A DNA stretch of 64,000 nt from Paenibacillus hemerocallicola (lineage in GTDB: Bacteria > Bacillota > Bacilli > Paenibacillales > NBRC-103111), in assembly GCF_006265175.1 (NCBI RefSeq), contig NZ_VDCQ01000004.1, forward strand, positions 175,407-239,406, given 5' to 3'. A program made the translations under genes and the position numbers. Each line of letters begins with the position of its first letter. The first letter of the stretch is position 1. Shown here in pieces: positions 11,120 to 36,753 of the stretch. The notes under the pieces were generated by a model. The model did no database searches and was not told the DNA's origin. It saw nothing but the letters and a program-made list of their open reading frames with translations.

Positions 11120-13560
11120 CCTATTCCCTCCATCAAACGTTTCGGTTCCGCCGACAGCCGGCCCAACATCCATTCCGCCAACTGCTGCGCATTCGTATAA
11201 ACGAGCGTTTGCTCAATCTCGCTTCGGGCGATTCTGCTTTGATAAGTGCTTGATTCGTTCATATCCCGTTTACGCGGGGAAGCGACCGTCTGCATCGTTC
11301 CGTTCTGCTGCATGATAAAGTCCAATTCCTCGAATACATTCAGCATAAAACGGATCATCGCGTCGGATAAGCCCGTCTTCCGCCGCATCGGTTCGAGAAA
11401 AGAAACGTTATCCGCCGCCCAGGAGCTTTTCTGCATGACGACTTGGTACAACAGCTTAAACGTTTCTCGGGAGGGCACTTTTGCGTAGTCGCGGTCCCAA
11501 TCCGCAAACACGGCGTATATCCGCTTTGCTTGGCATTGTCCCAGCATCGCTTCGAACGATTCCATACGTTCGGGCAAGGAAATGAGGAGCACATCCTCCG
11601 CCTCGGAAAAGCTGCCGCTTTTCGCCATAGCGTTCAATGGAATTATGCCGTTTCGCGAATCCATCGCCCATAGTCCGCACGATAGCCGGTCCGGATCGAT
11701 AAACCGGGAGGGCGCGTTCGCCTCGACGACCACGGCTCCGCAGCCGTTCGCATGACGCTCTCCGCCTCCGGCTGCCGTCAGCTCGGCAAACTTCTCGGCG
11801 GCCTGCTTGACTCCGCGCCAATCGAAAACTTGCACGTGAGGGATGCGCATATCGTGAATGACAATTTGCGGCTTGCGCACGCCGTTCCACTCGTTGATCC
11901 CCAATTCTCCGAGTATGTCGACTTTCGCCGTACCCGCGATGAGCTCGAGCGTGCTTCCCCGTCCGAACCCCAGCGCTTCCACAACACCCGCGGCACTATC
12001 CTCCGGCTGAGACAGCATCAGCTTCATATGCTGCTTGTCTTTGCCAAGAGCGCGCTTCTCCTGCACAGTCAGGTCGGACAAGACGAAACGGGGAGCCGGA
12101 TTGCCCATCCCGAATGGCGCCAATGCCTCGAGCTGCCGAATAAAGTCCACCGATATATCGCAAAGCTTGAACTCGGCATCCGCGTTATAAACCGGCCTGT
12201 AATGCTCTTCCTCCAGCCAATCCTCGGCCAGCATATTCAAACGATCGCGGAAATCGTCCAACCGATTCCGGGATAGCGACATTCCGGCCGCCGCCTGATG
12301 GCCTCCGTAATGGTCGAGAAGCTCCGCGCAATGCGTCAACGCGCGGTACATGTCATACCCGGGGATCGAACGTGCCGATCCTTTGGCCATACCGGTCTCC
12401 GGGTCGATCCCCAGAACGATGACCGGACGATAGAAGCGCTCCAGAATTTTCGCCGCCACGATTCCGATGACCCCAACGTTCCAGCCTTCCCGGGCGACCA
12501 CGATAACATTGCGCTTCGAATCGGGATCGTCGGCCGAAATAAGCTGCAGCGCCTCGTTCGTCATTTCTTCCACGATACGCTGGCGCTCCTTGTTCAGTTC
12601 ATCCAAAGTTTCGGCGATGCGCTCCGCTTCGATCCGGTCGTCCGTCGTTAGCAAAGTTACCGCATCCCCGGCATGATCGAGCCGGCCGCTTGCATTGATT
12701 CGCGGAGCCAAAGAAAAACCGAGATGCGTTGCGGTAATTTCTTTGTCCGCTACGCCCGATACTTCCAGCAGCGCTTGAATTCCCGTGTAGCTGCTATTCT
12801 GCATTCGCTCGAGCCCGAGCTTCACGATCGAGCGGTTCTCTCCGGAGAGCGGCATCAAATCCGCAACCGTTCCGATAGCGGCAATCTCCAGCAGTTCCAT
12901 GGGCAGTTCCCCCAGAAGCGCATGCGCCAGCTTGAACGCGACACCGACACCAGCCAATTGCTTGAACGGATAAGGACATCCGGGCTTTTTCGGATTGAGG
13001 ACCGCTATCGCGTCGGGCAGCAGCTCGGGAGGCTCGTGGTGATCCGTTACGACCGTATCGATGCCGATGCTTGCCGCATAGGCGACCTGTTCCCTGGCAC
13101 TGATTCCCGTATCCACCGTTATGATCAGGGATACGCCGCATTCCTTGGCCAGGCCGATCGCTTTCTCGTTCAAGCCGTATCCTTCGATTGCCCGATGCGG
13201 GATGTATGTATCGAACTGCGCACCCAGCCGTCGAAGCAAATGGGTCATGAGCGAAGTGCTGCTCACCCCGTCCGCATCATAATCGCCGTAAACGCGTATT
13301 TTTTCATTGGACTGAAGCGCCTGCCTGATGCGGGCGACCGCCAAATCCATCCCATCCAGCAGAAAAGGATCATGAAAATGATCCTTTCCGGCTTTGAGGA
13401 ACCGCCCCGCTTCCCCGGGTTCGGTAATGCCCCTTGCTGCGAGCATATTGGCAATGACGGGATGTAGCTTCAATTCGGCGCATAACCGTTCCGCAGCCGC
13501 TTGGTCGACATCGCTAACTTTCCATTTGGCTTTCGATTGAAGCAACGTTACACCCCCCAT
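11116..13560 (-). CDS. recJ: Single-stranded-DNA-specific 5'-3' exonuclease RecJ
   Basis: The 814-residue protein has the DHH-family core: DYDADGVSSTSLM (metal-binding DxDxDG), VTVDTGISA, VTDHHEPPELL (DHH) and the GGHQAAAGMSL motif of the DHHA1 part, followed by the OB-fold and the long C-terminal extension seen in Firmicutes. RecJ resects 5' ends in recombination and mismatch repair. The start was set at the ATG at 13560 behind GGGGGA. The frame extends to 13632, but that extra part is made of an imperfect duplication of the region around the start. It is coupled to apt by a 4-base overlap. Confidence 0.96.
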   Translation of the reverse strand: MGGVTLLQSKAKWKVSDVDQAAAERLCAELKLHPVIANMLAARGITEPGEAGRFLKAGKDHFHDPFLLDGMDLAVARIRQALQSNEKIRVYGDYDADGVSSTSLMTHLLRRLGAQFDTYIPHRAIEGYGLNEKAIGLAKECGVSLIITVDTGISAREQVAYAASIGIDTVVTDHHEPPELLPDAIAVLNPKKPGCPYPFKQLAGVGVAFKLAHALLGELPMELLEIAAIGTVADLMPLSGENRSIVKLGLERMQNSSYTGIQALLEVSGVADKEITATHLGFSLAPRINASGRLDHAGDAVTLLTTDDRIEAERIAETLDELNKERQRIVEEMTNEALQLISADDPDSKRNVIVVAREGWNVGVIGIVAAKILERFYRPVIVLGIDPETGMAKGSARSIPGYDMYRALTHCAELLDHYGGHQAAAGMSLSRNRLDDFRDRLNMLAEDWLEEEHYRPVYNADAEFKLCDISVDFIRQLEALAPFGMGNPAPRFVLSDLTVQEKRALGKDKQHMKLMLSQPEDSAAGVVEALGFGRGSTLELIAGTAKVDILGELGINEWNGVRKPQIVIHDMRIPHVQVFDWRGVKQAAEKFAELTAAGGGERHANGCGAVVVEANAPSRFIDPDRLSCGLWAMDSRNGIIPLNAMAKSGSFSEAEDVLLISLPERMESFEAMLGQCQAKRIYAVFADWDRDYAKVPSRETFKLLYQVVMQKSSWAADNVSFLEPMRRKTGLSDAMIRFMLNVFEELDFIMQQNGTMQTVASPRKRDMNESSTYQSRIARSEIEQTLVYTNAQQLAEWMLGRLSAEPKRLMEGIG

Positions 13561-31865: not shown

Positions 31866-32831
31866 TTACCCGATTTTGATTTTCCAATACGCGATTGTCT
31901 CCCGCTTCCACGTATAGCTCAAATACAGACAAGACCCCTCGGACACAATGGCTGGATATGAATATTCCCCGGCGTCCTTCTCCAGAACGAACGGACTTCC
32001 CCATGTTTTCCCGTTATCCCCGGACATGCGGAGTATTAACGGCGAACGCGGCCCCCAGTTCAGACCGACCGGATTGAAGATCATAACGAGGCGCGCGTCC
32101 TCCAGCGCGACGACATCGATGCCGCTGTTGTTGTTGGGCAATCCGACCGAATAGGCTGGCGACCACGTCCGGCCCCCGTCGACGGAGTCGCTGCGGTAAA
32201 TATCGGAGGCCGAGCTGCGTACCATCATATGGACGCCCTCGCGCGATTCCCATAATGTCGGCTGAATGATCCCCTTCGGAGGAAACGCATGATGATCGAC
32301 AGGAACCCGTTCGCTGCACGTCCACGTTTGACCGTGATCGTAAGAGATGTCTACAAAAGCGTCCCATTGCGAATCCGTCTCGATCGAAGCGGGGGCAAGA
32401 AGCGTGCCGTCGCGCAAATAGATCGGCTTGCAGCGCACAGGTCCTCTCCCGCCAACATCGCCCGGCACCAAATCCTTCTGCTCGGACCAAGTCAGACCTT
32501 CGTCCTTCGAGGTCATTATCCGGGTATGCCAATTCTCCACACGGTCCCCTACTTTGTAATAGAGCTGAATCGTCCCGAGTCCGGTACGGAACAATACGGG
32601 ATTCCAGTGCGGCACATTGTCCTCGTTGGCCGTTTCCCTCGGTTCGCTCCACTTTCCCCCGCTGCGTCTGGCGGTCCAAATCGCGACATCGGCAGCGCCC
32701 TCCCTCGTGCCGCCAAACCAGGCCGCCATAACATCGCCATCCGGCAAAACGACCAAGGTCGAAGCGTGACAGCTCGGAACAGGCTTTCCTTTCTCGAAAA
32801 TAAACTCCTTTTCGGCCGATACAATCTCCAT
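31866..32831 (-). CDS. Sialidase-like BNR-repeat glycoside-active protein
   Basis: The 321-residue protein has four clear Asp-boxes of the type SxDxGxTW (SKDEGLTWS, SYDHGQTWT, SVDGGRTWS, SGDNGKTWG) spaced around a six-bladed propeller. It belongs to the exo-sialidase/BNR superfamily. No signal peptide is visible, so it is probably cytoplasmic. The start ATG at 32831 has AAGGAGAG upstream; the frame extends to 32879 without support. It is 44 bases after the sugar-binding lipoprotein gene, in the same transcript. The substrate is unknown and need not be sialic acid. Confidence 0.82.
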   Translation of the reverse strand: MEIVSAEKEFIFEKGKPVPSCHASTLVVLPDGDVMAAWFGGTREGAADVAIWTARRSGGKWSEPRETANEDNVPHWNPVLFRTGLGTIQLYYKVGDRVENWHTRIMTSKDEGLTWSEQKDLVPGDVGGRGPVRCKPIYLRDGTLLAPASIETDSQWDAFVDISYDHGQTWTCSERVPVDHHAFPPKGIIQPTLWESREGVHMMVRSSASDIYRSDSVDGGRTWSPAYSVGLPNNNSGIDVVALEDARLVMIFNPVGLNWGPRSPLILRMSGDNGKTWGSPFVLEKDAGEYSYPAIVSEGSCLYLSYTWKRETIAYWKIKIG

Positions 32832-32875
32832 TGCGCAGCTCTCCTTCCATAATCCATAATTAAACGTTATGCCGC

Positions 32876-34117
32876 TCACTTCGGACCCGCGCTGATCACT
32901 TGATTCGCCTGATCCTCCGCTTCCCTCAATGCCGTGTTGACGTCCTTGATTCCATTAAAGTAATCGCTGAAAGCTTTATCCATAATAGTCGGCACTTCCT
33001 TGTAAACGACCGCGCCATGAGGTTTTCCGGGTTGATTTTTGCTTATCGCCTGCACGTTTTTCGATTCGATGCCCGGTACGTTTTTGCCGAATAAGCGGTC
33101 AAATCCTTTAATCGCAGTGGCTTTGCCGTCCATCGCCAATTTCTCTTGAATTTCATCGGAGAAAGCGACCATAACGGCCTGAAAAGCTTCTTGTTTATGT
33201 TCGCTGACGGAAGTAACGGCAAGCAGCGTTCCGTTTAAGGAAGGACCGTATCCGCGTCTGCTTTCGAATACCGGGTAGGACACCATATCCCAGTTCAAAT
33301 CCGAAACCGCGGACCACGCCGCGATGCGGTCGCCGTCCGGAATCATCGCCAACGTATTTTGGGTAAACATTGTCGCCGGATTGCTGCTTTTTGTATTGCC
33401 CGGTATGGCGTAGATTCTGGCAAGCGTCTCGAACACCGTCTTCCAGCCGGCCGTATTCAAGGCTGCCCTGCCCGATGCCGGGTCTATATAGTTCTGGTCC
33501 AGTTGACTTTTCGCATCCCACAAATTAGGAACTTGCAGACCGCTGTATAGAACGCCCCGATCGGTCGCGGTCAACCGTTTACCCAAATCGATAACTTCAT
33601 TCCAAGTCAGTCCGTCCTTCGGGTACGTCACGCCGTAACGGTCAAAAATATCTTTATTGTAGTACAGCGCGAAATAGCCGGGGAGGATAAACATCGCCAC
33701 TAATTTGTTGCGATCCTGCGAGAAGTTCACCGGATAATCCAAAATCCCGTCCTTAAACCGGCTAAAATCGAAATTGCTTCCTTTCATCAACAGCCTGTGA
33801 TCATAGTCCAGTCCCGCCGTCTGCATCGCACTCAATCCGCCTTGTCCTACTTCGATAAGATCCGGCTTGTCGCCGCGAGTCAGCATCGCGCCAAAATCAT
33901 TGTTCTGGTAGCGGATCAGCTCCATAGTAATGTGCGGATACTTCTTCGTTACCGCCTCGGCAATTAACTTGTAAGCGGTTTCAGTGGAGCTCGCAAGCTT
34001 GATCGTTACCGGCTTCGGCGGGGATACCGCTTTCTCGACGGTCGATTGTTTGCCGCCGCATCCCGTTAGCCCCCATGCGATCAGGGAAACCAATGACAGC
34101 TTTGCAGCCTTGTTCAT
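32876..34117 (-). CDS. Extracellular solute-binding lipoprotein (family 1, sugar ABC type)
   Basis: The 413-residue protein begins with a lipoprotein signal peptide whose lipobox LTGC places the lipidated cysteine at residue 20. A typical binding-protein fold follows (ITMELIRYQNNDFGAMLTRGDKPDLIE, FALYYNKDIFDRYGV, GLTWNEVIDLGKRL). Such proteins deliver sugars or oligosaccharides to MalFG-type permeases, but no permease genes are nearby. I chose the ATG at 34117 behind AGAGGGG over a TTG two codons upstream. It precedes the sialidase-like gene and has its own promoter with an AraC-type upstream element. Confidence 0.9.
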   Translation of the reverse strand: MNKAAKLSLVSLIAWGLTGCGGKQSTVEKAVSPPKPVTIKLASSTETAYKLIAEAVTKKYPHITMELIRYQNNDFGAMLTRGDKPDLIEVGQGGLSAMQTAGLDYDHRLLMKGSNFDFSRFKDGILDYPVNFSQDRNKLVAMFILPGYFALYYNKDIFDRYGVTYPKDGLTWNEVIDLGKRLTATDRGVLYSGLQVPNLWDAKSQLDQNYIDPASGRAALNTAGWKTVFETLARIYAIPGNTKSSNPATMFTQNTLAMIPDGDRIAAWSAVSDLNWDMVSYPVFESRRGYGPSLNGTLLAVTSVSEHKQEAFQAVMVAFSDEIQEKLAMDGKATAIKGFDRLFGKNVPGIESKNVQAISKNQPGKPHGAVVYKEVPTIMDKAFSDYFNGIKDVNTALREAEDQANQVISAGPK

Positions 34118-34200
34118 GTCCAACCCCTCTTTTCTATACGATATCCGACTATAGCGACGTTTGCTCCGTAGCCTCTAATCGAACGACTCTTACAACAATA

Positions 34201-34229
34201 AGTATACGCTGCAGCCAGAGCGTACCGAA
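34201..34229 (-). promoter_or_regulatory. Promoter of the solute-binding-protein operon
   Basis: On the minus strand TTCGGT and TATACT are separated by 17 bases. The layout is identical to that of the FAD oxidoreductase promoter at 36676-36704. Confidence 0.6.
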
Positions 34230-34249
34230 TGGAGTATATTATTCATTCC
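34226..34249 (-). promoter_or_regulatory. Putative AraC operator, copy 1
   Basis: This 24-base element matches the one at 36701-36724 at 19 of 24 positions, including the shared block CTCCATTCG. It overlaps the -35 box, as expected for an activator site. Confidence 0.6.
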
Positions 34250-34265
34250 ATAGAGGATATGATGG

Positions 34266-35087
34266 TTATTGATGATTCCCGTTATATCGGTACTTCGATG
34301 GAGATTGGCCCATAATCTTCGAGAACATCCGCGAGAAATAGTATGGGTCGGTAAACCCGAGTTTAAAGCATACCTCTTTCACGGTTAAATCCGTCGAATC
34401 GAAATATTCGCAGGCGCGGCGGATTTTCAATCTGAGGAAATAATCTATGGGCGAGTATCCCGTATTTTTATTGAACAGCTTGACCAAATACGGTTTGGAT
34501 AAGTTGGTCATTTTGCACAGCTGTTGCAGGGTAAGCCGTCCTTCGATATGACGGAGCATGAATTGTATAGCTTCGTTGACCGGTTTGTCCTTCGGCAAAC
34601 GGTTGGGGAGCACGCCTTGAAACATGGACAGCAATGTCAACAGCTGCCCGATCAGATGCGAGCTGTATATCCTATTATGGATTGACGTTTTATCGCTCCA
34701 GATCTCGTAGCACTCCGCGAACAGCTGCTTGCATTTGATGTGGGATTCCTCCAGACCGATCATATGGATGGCCGGGTTGCCTTGAAAGTACAGCGCGCTG
34801 TTCTCTCCCCGGATATGCGCAAAATAAAAGCTCCATGGTTCGCTTTCATACGAACCATAGGAATAGGGGTTGCCGGGCTGAATGAGAATGGCCGTATTTT
34901 TCCCGATCGTCGTTTTTTCCCGACTCGCGGCTTGGAACCAGCCTTTCCCCTCGTAGCTGTATATGAGAATATAGTTATCGGAGCCTCTCGCACGATTGAT
35001 GCTAAGAGACTGCATTTGATTCGTGCATCCGATCGTTTCGATATATAGCGCTTTAACCAATGGGTGCTCGTTCGTCTGCATATTCAT
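34266..35087 (-). CDS. AraC-family regulator of the glycan-related module
   Basis: The 273-residue protein has an N-terminal ligand-sensing half (YILIYSYEGKGWFQAA, AILIQPGNPYSYG) and a C-terminal AraC DNA-binding domain (LQQLCKMTNLSKPYLVKLF, then VKEVCFKLGFTDPYYFSRMF). It sits between the solute-binding-protein operon and the FAD oxidoreductase gene. Both targets carry the same 24-base element overlapping -35, making this the likely activator of both. The ligand is unknown, probably a sugar. AAGGG lies before the ATG. Confidence 0.9.
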   Translation of the reverse strand: MNMQTNEHPLVKALYIETIGCTNQMQSLSINRARGSDNYILIYSYEGKGWFQAASREKTTIGKNTAILIQPGNPYSYGSYESEPWSFYFAHIRGENSALYFQGNPAIHMIGLEESHIKCKQLFAECYEIWSDKTSIHNRIYSSHLIGQLLTLLSMFQGVLPNRLPKDKPVNEAIQFMLRHIEGRLTLQQLCKMTNLSKPYLVKLFNKNTGYSPIDYFLRLKIRRACEYFDSTDLTVKEVCFKLGFTDPYYFSRMFSKIMGQSPSKYRYNGNHQ

Positions 35088-35247
35088 TCATCGCCCTTCG
35101 CACATCTGCCATTTTGATCGATATGAGGCCGTCACTGTAGTATAGTAGTATACGATTGCGCCAGGCAATCTCTTTCCCGCAATCGTACCACAATCCGTGC
35201 TATCAATCCCGCTTCATTCGCAACCGTATCGCTTTCCCTTGGAAAAG

Positions 35248-35286
35248 GCAAAAAGCCGATGCAATCTTTCAATCGGCATCCGGCTT
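35248..35286 (-). terminator. Terminator of the FAD oxidoreductase gene
   Basis: AAGCCG.GATGC pairs with GCATCGGCTT with one bulge, followed by T residues on the minus strand. Confidence 0.75.
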
Positions 35287-35317
35287 AAATATCGGTATTC
35301 CAAATCGCAGCATATCC

Positions 35318-36607
35318 TCACACTTCCAAGTTCGCACCATTTCGCTCGACCGTTCGCCGCACCAGCAGGGGGTCGACATCGCGCGGGCTGCATCCCATCC
35401 CGATGCTCAATCCTGCGGCAATACCGGCCGCTTGCCCCATCATGGAGCAGGTGGTCATCACTCGCGCGGACGATAGCGCCAATTGATCGGCGGACATGCA
35501 TCTGCCTGCAATCATCATATTGCGGGCATCCTTGGCGATCAAGCTGCGTAACGGAACTTGGTAAGGCGGGACTTTCAGTTCGCGGTGTCCGAGCACATAA
35601 GTTCTCTTATCGTCGTCTGGTTTGTGAGCATCCAAATAATAAACGCCTCTTGCGATCGCATCGTCGAATTTACGTCCCGCTCTCAAATCTTCAAGCGCCA
35701 ATACGTAATCGCCAACAACCCTTCTGCCTTCACGGATGCCGATTTGGGGCGAGCAATAATCCAACAGCCATTTTCTTTTCTCGACCTTCTGGTAGTAATC
35801 GAGCACCTCCATCATTCTGCGCCGGGCTCGAATTTCGGCCGCCGTCATGCTTTCCGTATCGGTCGCGTCGAACATCGGTATTTTCACTTTGATCGCATTG
35901 CCTTTCGGTCCGTTAGGCCATATGCTCGTCATCGGCAAATCCGTTTTCTCCCGAATGGCCTCGAACCACCCTTCGGGTACTTCTTCGCGGATGTCCTCCC
36001 CCTCGGCATGACGTATAAAAAACATCATCGACATCGGCAGCTGGACCTGATCCTCCTCCCGGCCTTTCAATGTGGAGAAGCCCGCCATATGGGCCACCTG
36101 CGCCTCGCCCGTGCAATCGATAAATTGCTTCGCTCTAAGCGCCTCCGGCCCGGATTTGCCGCATATAATGCATTCCTTGATGACCCCGCCGTCGCTGACC
36201 GATACATCGACAAACTGCGTATGCAGCAGCAGCTTTACGTTGTGGCGAAGGAGCATTTCCTGAAGAACGACAGCCAGAATCGAATGATTGAACAGCCGAT
36301 GGTCCGACTTCGGGTACGGAACATAAGGCGCTACCGCATGGAAATTTTCCAAATCCGCGATTATCGAATCGAAAACTTGACCTTGCCCGGCGGTTTCACC
36401 GCAAAATGCCCCGACTCCTCCCGTCGTCGCATTGCCGCCCACTACGGCAAAGCGCTCGATCAGAATGACTTTCGCTCCGGTTCGCGCTGCCGCTACAGCC
36501 GCAGACACGCCCGCCATTCCGCCGCCAATGACGGCGATATCGGCTTCATATCTCAATGGTATCGTCCTATTCCAATACACCTGTTCAGGCACAGCCGGTG
36601 CTGTCAT
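35318..36607 (-). CDS. FAD-dependent oxidoreductase (PF12831-type)
   Basis: The 429-residue protein has an N-terminal Rossmann dinucleotide motif (ADIAVIGGGMAGVSAAVAAAR, then an acidic end VILIER), the GGNATTGGVGAFCGE segment, QFIDCTGEAQVAHMAG, and a C-terminal second FAD contact (MMIAGRCMSADQLALSSARVM). This family often accompanies carbohydrate-use genes, but the reactions are mostly uncharacterised. AGAGGTG precedes the ATG at 36607. It has its own promoter and terminator, so it forms a single-gene unit within the AraC module. Confidence 0.88.
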   Translation of the reverse strand: MTAPAVPEQVYWNRTIPLRYEADIAVIGGGMAGVSAAVAAARTGAKVILIERFAVVGGNATTGGVGAFCGETAGQGQVFDSIIADLENFHAVAPYVPYPKSDHRLFNHSILAVVLQEMLLRHNVKLLLHTQFVDVSVSDGGVIKECIICGKSGPEALRAKQFIDCTGEAQVAHMAGFSTLKGREEDQVQLPMSMMFFIRHAEGEDIREEVPEGWFEAIREKTDLPMTSIWPNGPKGNAIKVKIPMFDATDTESMTAAEIRARRRMMEVLDYYQKVEKRKWLLDYCSPQIGIREGRRVVGDYVLALEDLRAGRKFDDAIARGVYYLDAHKPDDDKRTYVLGHRELKVPPYQVPLRSLIAKDARNMMIAGRCMSADQLALSSARVMTTCSMMGQAAGIAAGLSIGMGCSPRDVDPLLVRRTVERNGANLEV

Positions 36608-36675
36608 TCGTTGTCACCTCTTTCCCGGATCCATCGCAATCCGTATGCTTTTGCCCTCGCGGACCCCGCAAACCA

Positions 36676-36704
36676 AGTATAACCCGCCGCTCCGGTTCGT
36701 CGAA
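36676..36704 (-). promoter_or_regulatory. Promoter of the FAD oxidoreductase gene
   Basis: On the minus strand TTCGAC and TATACT are separated by 17 bases. The -35 overlaps the putative AraC operator by 4 bases. Confidence 0.6.
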
Positions 36705-36724
36705 TGGAGCATATGATCCATTGG
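36701..36724 (-). promoter_or_regulatory. Putative AraC operator, copy 2
   Basis: It holds a near-perfect 18-base palindrome (ATGGAGCATATGATCCAT, 36704-36721) and matches copy 1 at 34226-34249 at 19 of 24 positions. Confidence 0.6.
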
Positions 36725-36753
36725 ATGGACGAAATGATGGCGAAATGAACGAC

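What the first reader, a model, noticed from the sequence alone, without database searches (positions are those of the whole stretch)
34201..36724. Two promoters share a 24-base element with identical geometry: a predicted two-target AraC regulon
Seen directly: upstream of the solute-binding-protein gene (34226-34249) and the FAD oxidoreductase gene (36701-36724) a 24-base element matches at 19 of 24 positions. In both, the element begins exactly 25 bases from the first base of the -10 complement (AGTATA), both -10 boxes are TATACT, both spacers are 17, and both -35 boxes overlap the element. The AraC gene lies between the two targets. AraC-type activators commonly bind over -35. Inference: this regulator switches on binding protein, sialidase-like enzyme and oxidoreductase together.
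Basis: partly seen in the sequence, partly recalled or inferred. Interest (0 to 1): 0.7.

Follow-up and report, generated by a model that had tools for sequence, protein, structure and literature searches.

The report
AraC regulator's matched pair of switches
In a relative of Paenibacillus mesophilus, two neighbouring genes carry nearly the same double site just in front of them, and an AraC-type regulator encoded between them likely binds both sites and would switch the genes on together, a new example of a well-known kind of bacterial switch.

Summary
The 24-mers match at 19 of 24, inside a 40-bp block matching at 32 of 40; nothing else in the window comes near. It is best read as two 17-bp direct half-sites 21 bp apart, the proximal one over the -35 region: the araBAD I1-I2 layout within 1 bp. 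Both sites lie at the same places in P. mesophilus, 37 of 40 conserved each. A model of the four sites scores 63-67 bits on them and at most 17.8 elsewhere in six genomes. A half-site matrix trained only on those four found paired sites beside 26 of 28 AraC homologues (32-42% identical), pointing away from the regulator, with a -10-like TA...T at the same distance in 24 of 26. The best of 30 other AraC-type loci scored 15.4 bits; 23 of the 28 scored higher. So the local AraC protein very likely binds both promoters, probably as an activator. Binding, activation and ligand are untested. The sialidase-like gene is a species-specific passenger, absent from the P. mesophilus locus. New member of a known kind.

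The parts
36702..36739 (-). Operator A: tandem half-sites 36723-36739 (distal) and 36702-36718 (proximal), 21 bp apart
   Evidence: Self-match at offset 21 is 12 of 17; 37 of 40 conserved in P. mesophilus
34227..34264 (-). Operator B: tandem half-sites 34248-34264 (distal) and 34227-34243 (proximal), 21 bp apart
   Evidence: Self-match at offset 21 is 11 of 17; 37 of 40 conserved in P. mesophilus
36676..36681 (-). Predicted -10 box TATACT of the FAD-oxidoreductase promoter
   Evidence: Sequence; kept in P. mesophilus
34201..34206 (-). Predicted -10 box TATACT of the binding-protein promoter
   Evidence: Sequence; kept in P. mesophilus
36699..36704 (-). Weak -35 region TTCGAC, overlapping operator A
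   Evidence: Sequence; 2 of 6 to TTGACA
34224..34229 (-). Weak -35 region TTCGGT, overlapping operator B
   Evidence: Sequence; 2 of 6 to TTGACA
34266..35087 (-). AraC-family regulator gene, 273 aa, proposed binder of both operators
   Evidence: PF02311 and PF12833 over cut-off; 78% identical orthologue in P. mesophilus
35318..36607 (-). FAD-dependent oxidoreductase gene behind operator A
   Evidence: PF12831, 315 bits
35250..35286 (-). Likely intrinsic terminator after the FAD gene
   Evidence: Hairpin with T-run, similar hairpin at the same place in P. mesophilus
32876..34123 (-). Solute-binding protein gene behind operator B
   Evidence: PF01547; 79% identical orthologue in P. mesophilus
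31866..32879 (-). Sialidase-like (BNR_2) gene, overlapping the end of the binding-protein gene; likely co-transcribed
   Evidence: PF13088; absent at this place in P. mesophilus

Best explanation
The FAD-oxidoreductase gene and the binding-protein gene are each preceded by a tandem pair of 17-bp half-sites spaced 21 bp, which the AraC-family protein encoded between them likely binds as a dimer and would thereby activate both predicted promoters. Shown by sequence: the repeats, their fixed distance to a TATACT hexamer, their conservation in P. mesophilus, and the same paired element beside homologous AraC genes. Inferred: the proximal half-site overlaps a poor -35 region, so the promoters would be weak alone; a bound AraC dimer, centred near -51.5 if transcription starts 7 bases after the -10, would contact RNA polymerase as AraC does at araBAD, once a sugar-like ligand fills its N-terminal domain. 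The FAD gene would be made as a single-gene message ending at the terminator; the binding-protein gene, here with the sialidase-like gene, as a second message. The regulator gene has no such site of its own.
For: Offset 21 gives the best self-match among offsets 8-32 in all four sites: 12, 11, 11, 13 of 17. Both sites 37 of 40 conserved in P. mesophilus, with flanks less so, clearest at site B. Exactly two zero-mismatch places in each of G000 and G010 and none in the other 115 of 117 genomes searched; model gap 63.1 against 17.8 bits (the model was trained on those four sites). Independent test: matrix from the four sites finds paired sites next to 26 of 28 AraC homologues, 24 of 26 with TA...T at the same distance and 2 of 26 one base further; 23 of 28 loci score above the best of 30 other HTH_18 loci, and the mean score peaks at spacing 21 (18.7; 5-9 at the 14 other spacings tested). 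Protein has AraC ligand-binding and HTH domains. PMC7408454 (passages) gives araBAD half-sites as direct repeats centred at -52.5, partly over -35; PMC8579813 (passages) takes upstream tandem sites as the mark of AraC activators.
Against: No binding or expression data. Only one species with an orthologous regulator was available, and its site-A downstream flank is also conserved (29 of 34). Single-site significance of the repeat is modest if any offset is allowed: shuffle p 0.017, 0.076, 0.14, 0.005. Site A is equally strong as a palindrome (9 of 10 pairs, p 0.0003). Two homologue loci (L028, L057) have no site, and three of the 26 (L029, L030, L042) score only 11 bits, within the control range. 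Many homologue loci are close relatives. The araBAD control did not stand out in the repeat test (8 of 17, tied with other offsets).
Confidence: 0.77

Rival explanations
1. The element is the palindromic operator of a different, unlinked regulator (for example a LacI- or GntR-type repressor) that blocks the -35 region of both promoters.
For: Site A contains AATGGA-N8-TCCATT, 9 of 10 pairs, shuffle p 0.0003; the genome's only zero-mismatch copy of that pattern. G112 has a perfect 24-bp palindrome of the same type before a binding-protein gene.
Against: Site B and its orthologue reach only 7 of 10 pairs, p 0.13 and 0.08. The same matrix finds sites beside 26 of 28 AraC homologue genes. In 18 aligned sites the nine invariant bases fall 5 in the distal and 4 in the proximal half-site, the 4 at the same half-site positions as four of the 5, which fits a direct repeat (partly by construction, since the matrix chose the sites).
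Confidence: 0.1
2. The AraC protein binds both sites but acts mainly as a repressor, or switches between repression and activation as E. coli AraC does by looping.
For: The proximal half-site covers the -35 region; the two operators are about 2.5 kb apart.
Against: PMC8579813 passages and the araBAD geometry favour activation when the pair ends at -35; the -35 hexamers are too poor to need repression.
Confidence: 0.1
3. The two blocks are similar by chance or are the remains of a recent duplication without regulatory function.
For: Two copies lie 2.5 kb apart in one gene group.
Against: Similarity stops at the 40-bp block and the -10 (3 of 22 and 15 of 34 outside), and each block stayed 37 of 40 between species. 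The chance of 32 of 40 is 5e-13 per comparison.
Confidence: 0.03

Closest known systems
E. coli AraC at araBAD (I1-I2 half-sites)
   Same: Direct half-sites 21 bp apart, the proximal one overlapping -35. In the araBAD fragment (typed from recall, matched in 5345 of 5426 E. coli genomes) the distal TCCAT lies 47 bases before the -10 TACTGT; here TCCAT or TCTAT lies 48 bases before TATACT (counted by hand; I1, I2 and -10 labels recalled). Pair centre -52.5 (PMC7408454, passages) against about -51.5 here (inferred start).
   Different: The protein is only distantly related: 84.6 bits to the AraC equivalog model against a cut-off of 208. Half-site box 1 differs (recalled TAGC in E. coli). No O2-type looping site or CAP site was looked for.
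AraC-type regulators of carbohydrate genes in Caldicellulosiruptor
   Same: Tandem repeats with large spacers upstream of promoters, predicted activators of sugar transporter and enzyme genes (PMC8579813, passages).
   Different: Different genes and organisms; motifs were not compared letter by letter.
AraC regulators divergent to DUF5107 genes in Paenibacillus relatives (found here)
   Same: 32-42% identical regulator, same paired half-sites, same distance to the -10 in 24 of 26.
   Different: There one site drives one divergent gene; here two sites drive two genes on the regulator's own strand. The proximal half-site usually ends TCAAT there, TCCAT here.

Membership tests
AraC/XylS family regulator | AraC-type double helix-turn-helix domain | tested here: met
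   PF12833 71.4 bits (cut-off 33.6), PF00165 62.6 bits (cut-off 26.6)
AraC/XylS family regulator | N-terminal sugar-type ligand-binding domain (AraC subgroup) | tested here: met
   PF02311 35.7 bits (cut-off 21.1)
E. coli-type arabinose regulator AraC (equivalog) | Score above the NCBIfam cut-off | tested here: not met
   NF007860 84.6 bits against 208
araBAD-type tandem operator | Two direct half-sites 21 bp apart | tested here: met
   Best offset 21 in all four sites; spacing 21 peaks over 28 homologue loci
araBAD-type tandem operator | Proximal half-site overlaps the -35 region | tested here: met
   34224-34229 and 36699-36704 overlap the elements, given the predicted -10
araBAD-type tandem operator | Bound and activated by the AraC protein with a ligand | not testable with these tools
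   Needs footprinting and reporter assays
Palindromic repressor operator (LacI/GntR type) | Inverted repeat kept in all copies | tested here: not met
   9 of 10 pairs in winA and mesA; best 7 of 10 in winB and mesB, shuffle p 0.13 and 0.08

The most novel reading that the evidence does not exclude
A whole subfamily of AraC regulators keeps one rigid promoter grammar (T..TC.AT-type half-sites, 21 bp apart, 27 bp from the proximal half-site core to the -10) across 32-42% protein identity and two bacterial families, while its targets are exchanged: mostly a divergent DUF5107 gene, in one case a dehydrogenase-led sugar gene set, and here two promoters on the regulator's own strand for a flavin oxidoreductase and a lone binding protein. 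The regulator's DNA code outlives its regulon.
Probability: 0.6. Interest if true: 0.5.

Novelty: new member of a known kind. Interest (0 to 1): 0.4.

Why it matters
It gives a concrete, testable operator for an uncharacterised AraC subfamily, ties an unstudied FAD oxidoreductase, a lone binding protein and perhaps a sialidase-like enzyme to one signal, and offers a handle on DUF5107 genes, since the same matrix finds their likely control sites. The ligand of one member would suggest what others sense.

Tried and rejected
Palindrome reading (AATGGA-N8-TCCATT): attractive at site A, fails at site B. As a pattern it is no guide: in the window 35 matches at up to 3 mismatches against 25 expected; in the genome 37 places at up to one mismatch, 5 for the reversed control, about 21 by a rough equal-base estimate of mine.

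Search for a wider regulon or the missing permeases: the 20-base pattern with up to 3 mismatches and the sequence model gave nothing near the two sites' strength. Of the matches I looked at the context of 8 loci: several lie inside genes. One, identical in both genomes, lies in the gap before another AraC gene next to a BNR-like gene (L066, L073), but it lacks the 21-bp repeat, sits next to the start of that gene, and that AraC protein aligns only over 146 residues at 24%, so I did not count it.

FAD-gene relatives in distant phyla (L012-L023, L025) show no relative of this regulator by tblastn at 1e-5 and were not pursued. P. thalictri (L024) has the FAD gene with a BNR gene, permeases and a histidine-kinase/AraC-type response-regulator pair, and no element before the FAD gene; its best matrix hit, 16.1 bits, lies far away at 13166 of the 13-kb locus.

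araBAD as positive control for the repeat test was uninformative: 8 of 17 at offset 21, equalled or exceeded at other offsets. Of 23 matches in the order search, 10 came with loci (3 already held); the other 13 were not scanned. Control loci were the 30 best-scoring HTH_18 loci of the own genome, slightly shorter than the homologue loci, not a random draw. The AraC tree puts the window's protein in a fully supported clade of 10 rows, but rows P0002-P0012 were read with alignment gaps, one of six intended controls was not extracted and long branches meet, so it carries no weight here. P0002-P0009 (45-77% identical) could not be checked for sites, as no contigs were available for them. Loci L049 and L050 were fetched and not analysed. 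No structure was predicted.

Papers: five searches answered. DUF5107 occurs in one held paper, seen only in the listing. None of the listings showed a paper on this operator; the library lacks most subscription journals. PMC8579813 and PMC7408454: passages read.

Full report
What was claimed and what is there. The two 24-base elements match at 19 of 24 positions and stand at the same distance from TATACT hexamers. On the coding strand the match is a 40-bp block, 36701-36740 before the FAD oxidoreductase gene and 34226-34265 before the binding-protein gene, with 32 of 40 identical; upstream 3 of 22 and downstream 15 of 34 match. In the 64-kb window nothing else approaches this, and of 171 pairs among 19 TATACT hexamers this pair stands out, 19 of 24 against 15 for the next.

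Genes. On the minus strand, in order of transcription: FAD oxidoreductase (PF12831), AraC-type regulator (PF02311 and PF12833), solute-binding protein (PF01547), sialidase-like BNR_2 protein (PF13088). A hairpin with a T-run follows the FAD gene in both species, so the FAD message likely ends there. No permease-like gene was evident by eye in the ORF list around the group (26-44 kb).

Anatomy of the element. Each block is best read as two 17-bp half-sites in direct repeat, 21 bp apart. Offset 21 gives the highest self-match among offsets 8-32 in all four sites (window A, B and P. mesophilus A, B): 12, 11, 11, 13 of 17 in the order winA, mesA, winB, mesB. The shuffle p at offset 21 is 0.0003, 0.003, 0.005 and 0 of 3000; allowing any offset it is 0.017, 0.076, 0.14 and 0.005, so single sites are only moderately significant. 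Site A is also a near palindrome (p 0.0003), site B is not (p 0.13). The proximal half-site overlaps the -35 region, which is poor in both promoters.

Conservation. P. mesophilus (L011; genome G010 has a contig of the same length and matching coordinates) has the orthologous group. Both sites are at the same places, 37 of 40 conserved each, with TATACT kept. The flanks of site B are less conserved (13 of 22, 19 of 34); at site A the upstream flank is not (7 of 22) but the downstream one is (29 of 34). The sialidase-like gene is missing between the binding-protein gene and the pheA-like gene there; its nearest relatives in G010 are 58-60% identical and on other contigs. P. thalictri has the FAD gene (77%) without this regulator nearby and without the element before it.

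How many targets. The 28-base core with no mismatch occurs at two places in G000 and two in G010 among 117 genomes; with up to 3 mismatches 14 of 117 genomes have a match. Three other genomes of the genus (G008, G009, G011) have none, and they also lack the regulator (no match at E 1e-40) and the FAD gene (no match at E 1e-170), so that absence is no separate proof. A sequence model of the four sites gives 63-67 bits there and at most 17.8 elsewhere in six genomes. The model was trained on these sites, so the information lies in the gap, not in the hits. Weaker sites, or sites in missing parts of the draft assembly, cannot be excluded.

Who binds. The main test was independent of the training. 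A half-site matrix from the four sites, paired at 21 bp, was run over 28 loci of AraC homologues 32-42% identical: the 21 non-orthologous matches of the family search and the 7 new loci given by the order search. In 26 of 28 a site lies 93-164 bases upstream of the AraC match and points away from the gene. In 24 of these 26 a TA...T hexamer stands at exactly the distance seen in the window, in the other two one base further; at the 12 other offsets tried the counts are 0 except 1 at one offset. In 25 of the 26 the divergent gene has the same conserved start by eye, identified as DUF5107 (PF17128) by Pfam for the one scanned (L031); in L044 it is a dehydrogenase-like gene followed by what look like an enolase-type enzyme and a galactosidase (by eye). 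Thirty other HTH_18 loci of the same genome gave at most 15.4 bits, and 23 of 28 homologue loci gave more. The mean paired score peaks at spacing 21 (18.7; 5-9 at the 14 other spacings tested; controls 6.9 at spacing 21). L028 and L057 have no site; L029, L030 and L042 score 11 and count by position. The hits come from 9 genera in two families, but many are close relatives. Over 18 sites (4 plus 14 of 16 distinct homologue sites) the nine invariant bases are 5 in the distal and 4 in the proximal half-site, the 4 at matching positions, as a direct repeat read by two identical domains would give; part of this is built in by the matrix.

How it would work. PMC7408454 (passages) describes araBAD: direct half-sites I1 and I2 centred at -52.5, partly over -35. 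With a start 7 bases after the -10, the pair here is centred near -51.5 (inference). PMC8579813 (passages) reports that AraC-type tandem sites upstream of promoters in Caldicellulosiruptor suggest activators. I therefore infer activation of both promoters by the ligand-bound AraC protein. No such site stands before araC itself, so the regulator is likely not under its own control through this element. Ligand, binding and activation are untested.

Verdict. Mechanistically it is a familiar AraC activator, so novelty is modest; the persistence of the grammar while targets change is the more interesting part.

Noticed in passing
L098:6610-6633 (G112); also L093: A perfect 24-bp palindrome (GGAATGGATAATATTATCCATTCC) one mismatch from the 28-base core lies between a binding-protein gene and a divergent histidine kinase/response-regulator pair in another Paenibacillus family; the response regulator's AraC-type domain is 33% identical to the window's over 101 residues.
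   Followed up: partly
L066:1501-1520 and L073 (C78 of G000, C25 of G010): A 20-base match (3 mismatches), identical in both genomes, lies between a different AraC gene and a BNR-like gene, without the 21-bp repeat.
   Followed up: partly
L031, L051-L056 and relatives: AraC regulators divergent to a large DUF5107 gene (1110-1113 aa in L138 and L139) share a conserved operator; DUF5107's only solved relative by sequence is a TPR-domain protein, 5cd6.
   Followed up: partly
L024:1010-10755: In P. thalictri the same FAD gene (77%) and a BNR gene (51%) sit with permeases and another binding protein next to a histidine-kinase/AraC-type response-regulator pair: likely the same function under a different regulator.
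   Followed up: no
32876-34123: The binding-protein gene has no permease-like neighbours in the ORF list; its transporter partners, if any, are unknown.
   Followed up: no
2087-2377: Another AraC-type domain in the window, 35% identical over 98 residues, not examined.
   Followed up: no
35139-35168: Promoter-like site before araC (TTGCCT, 18, TATACT) without the operator.
   Followed up: no
G000 (own genome): At least 150 HTH_18 matches over cut-off; 150 of 456 first-look candidates were scored: a very large AraC-type complement.
   Followed up: no
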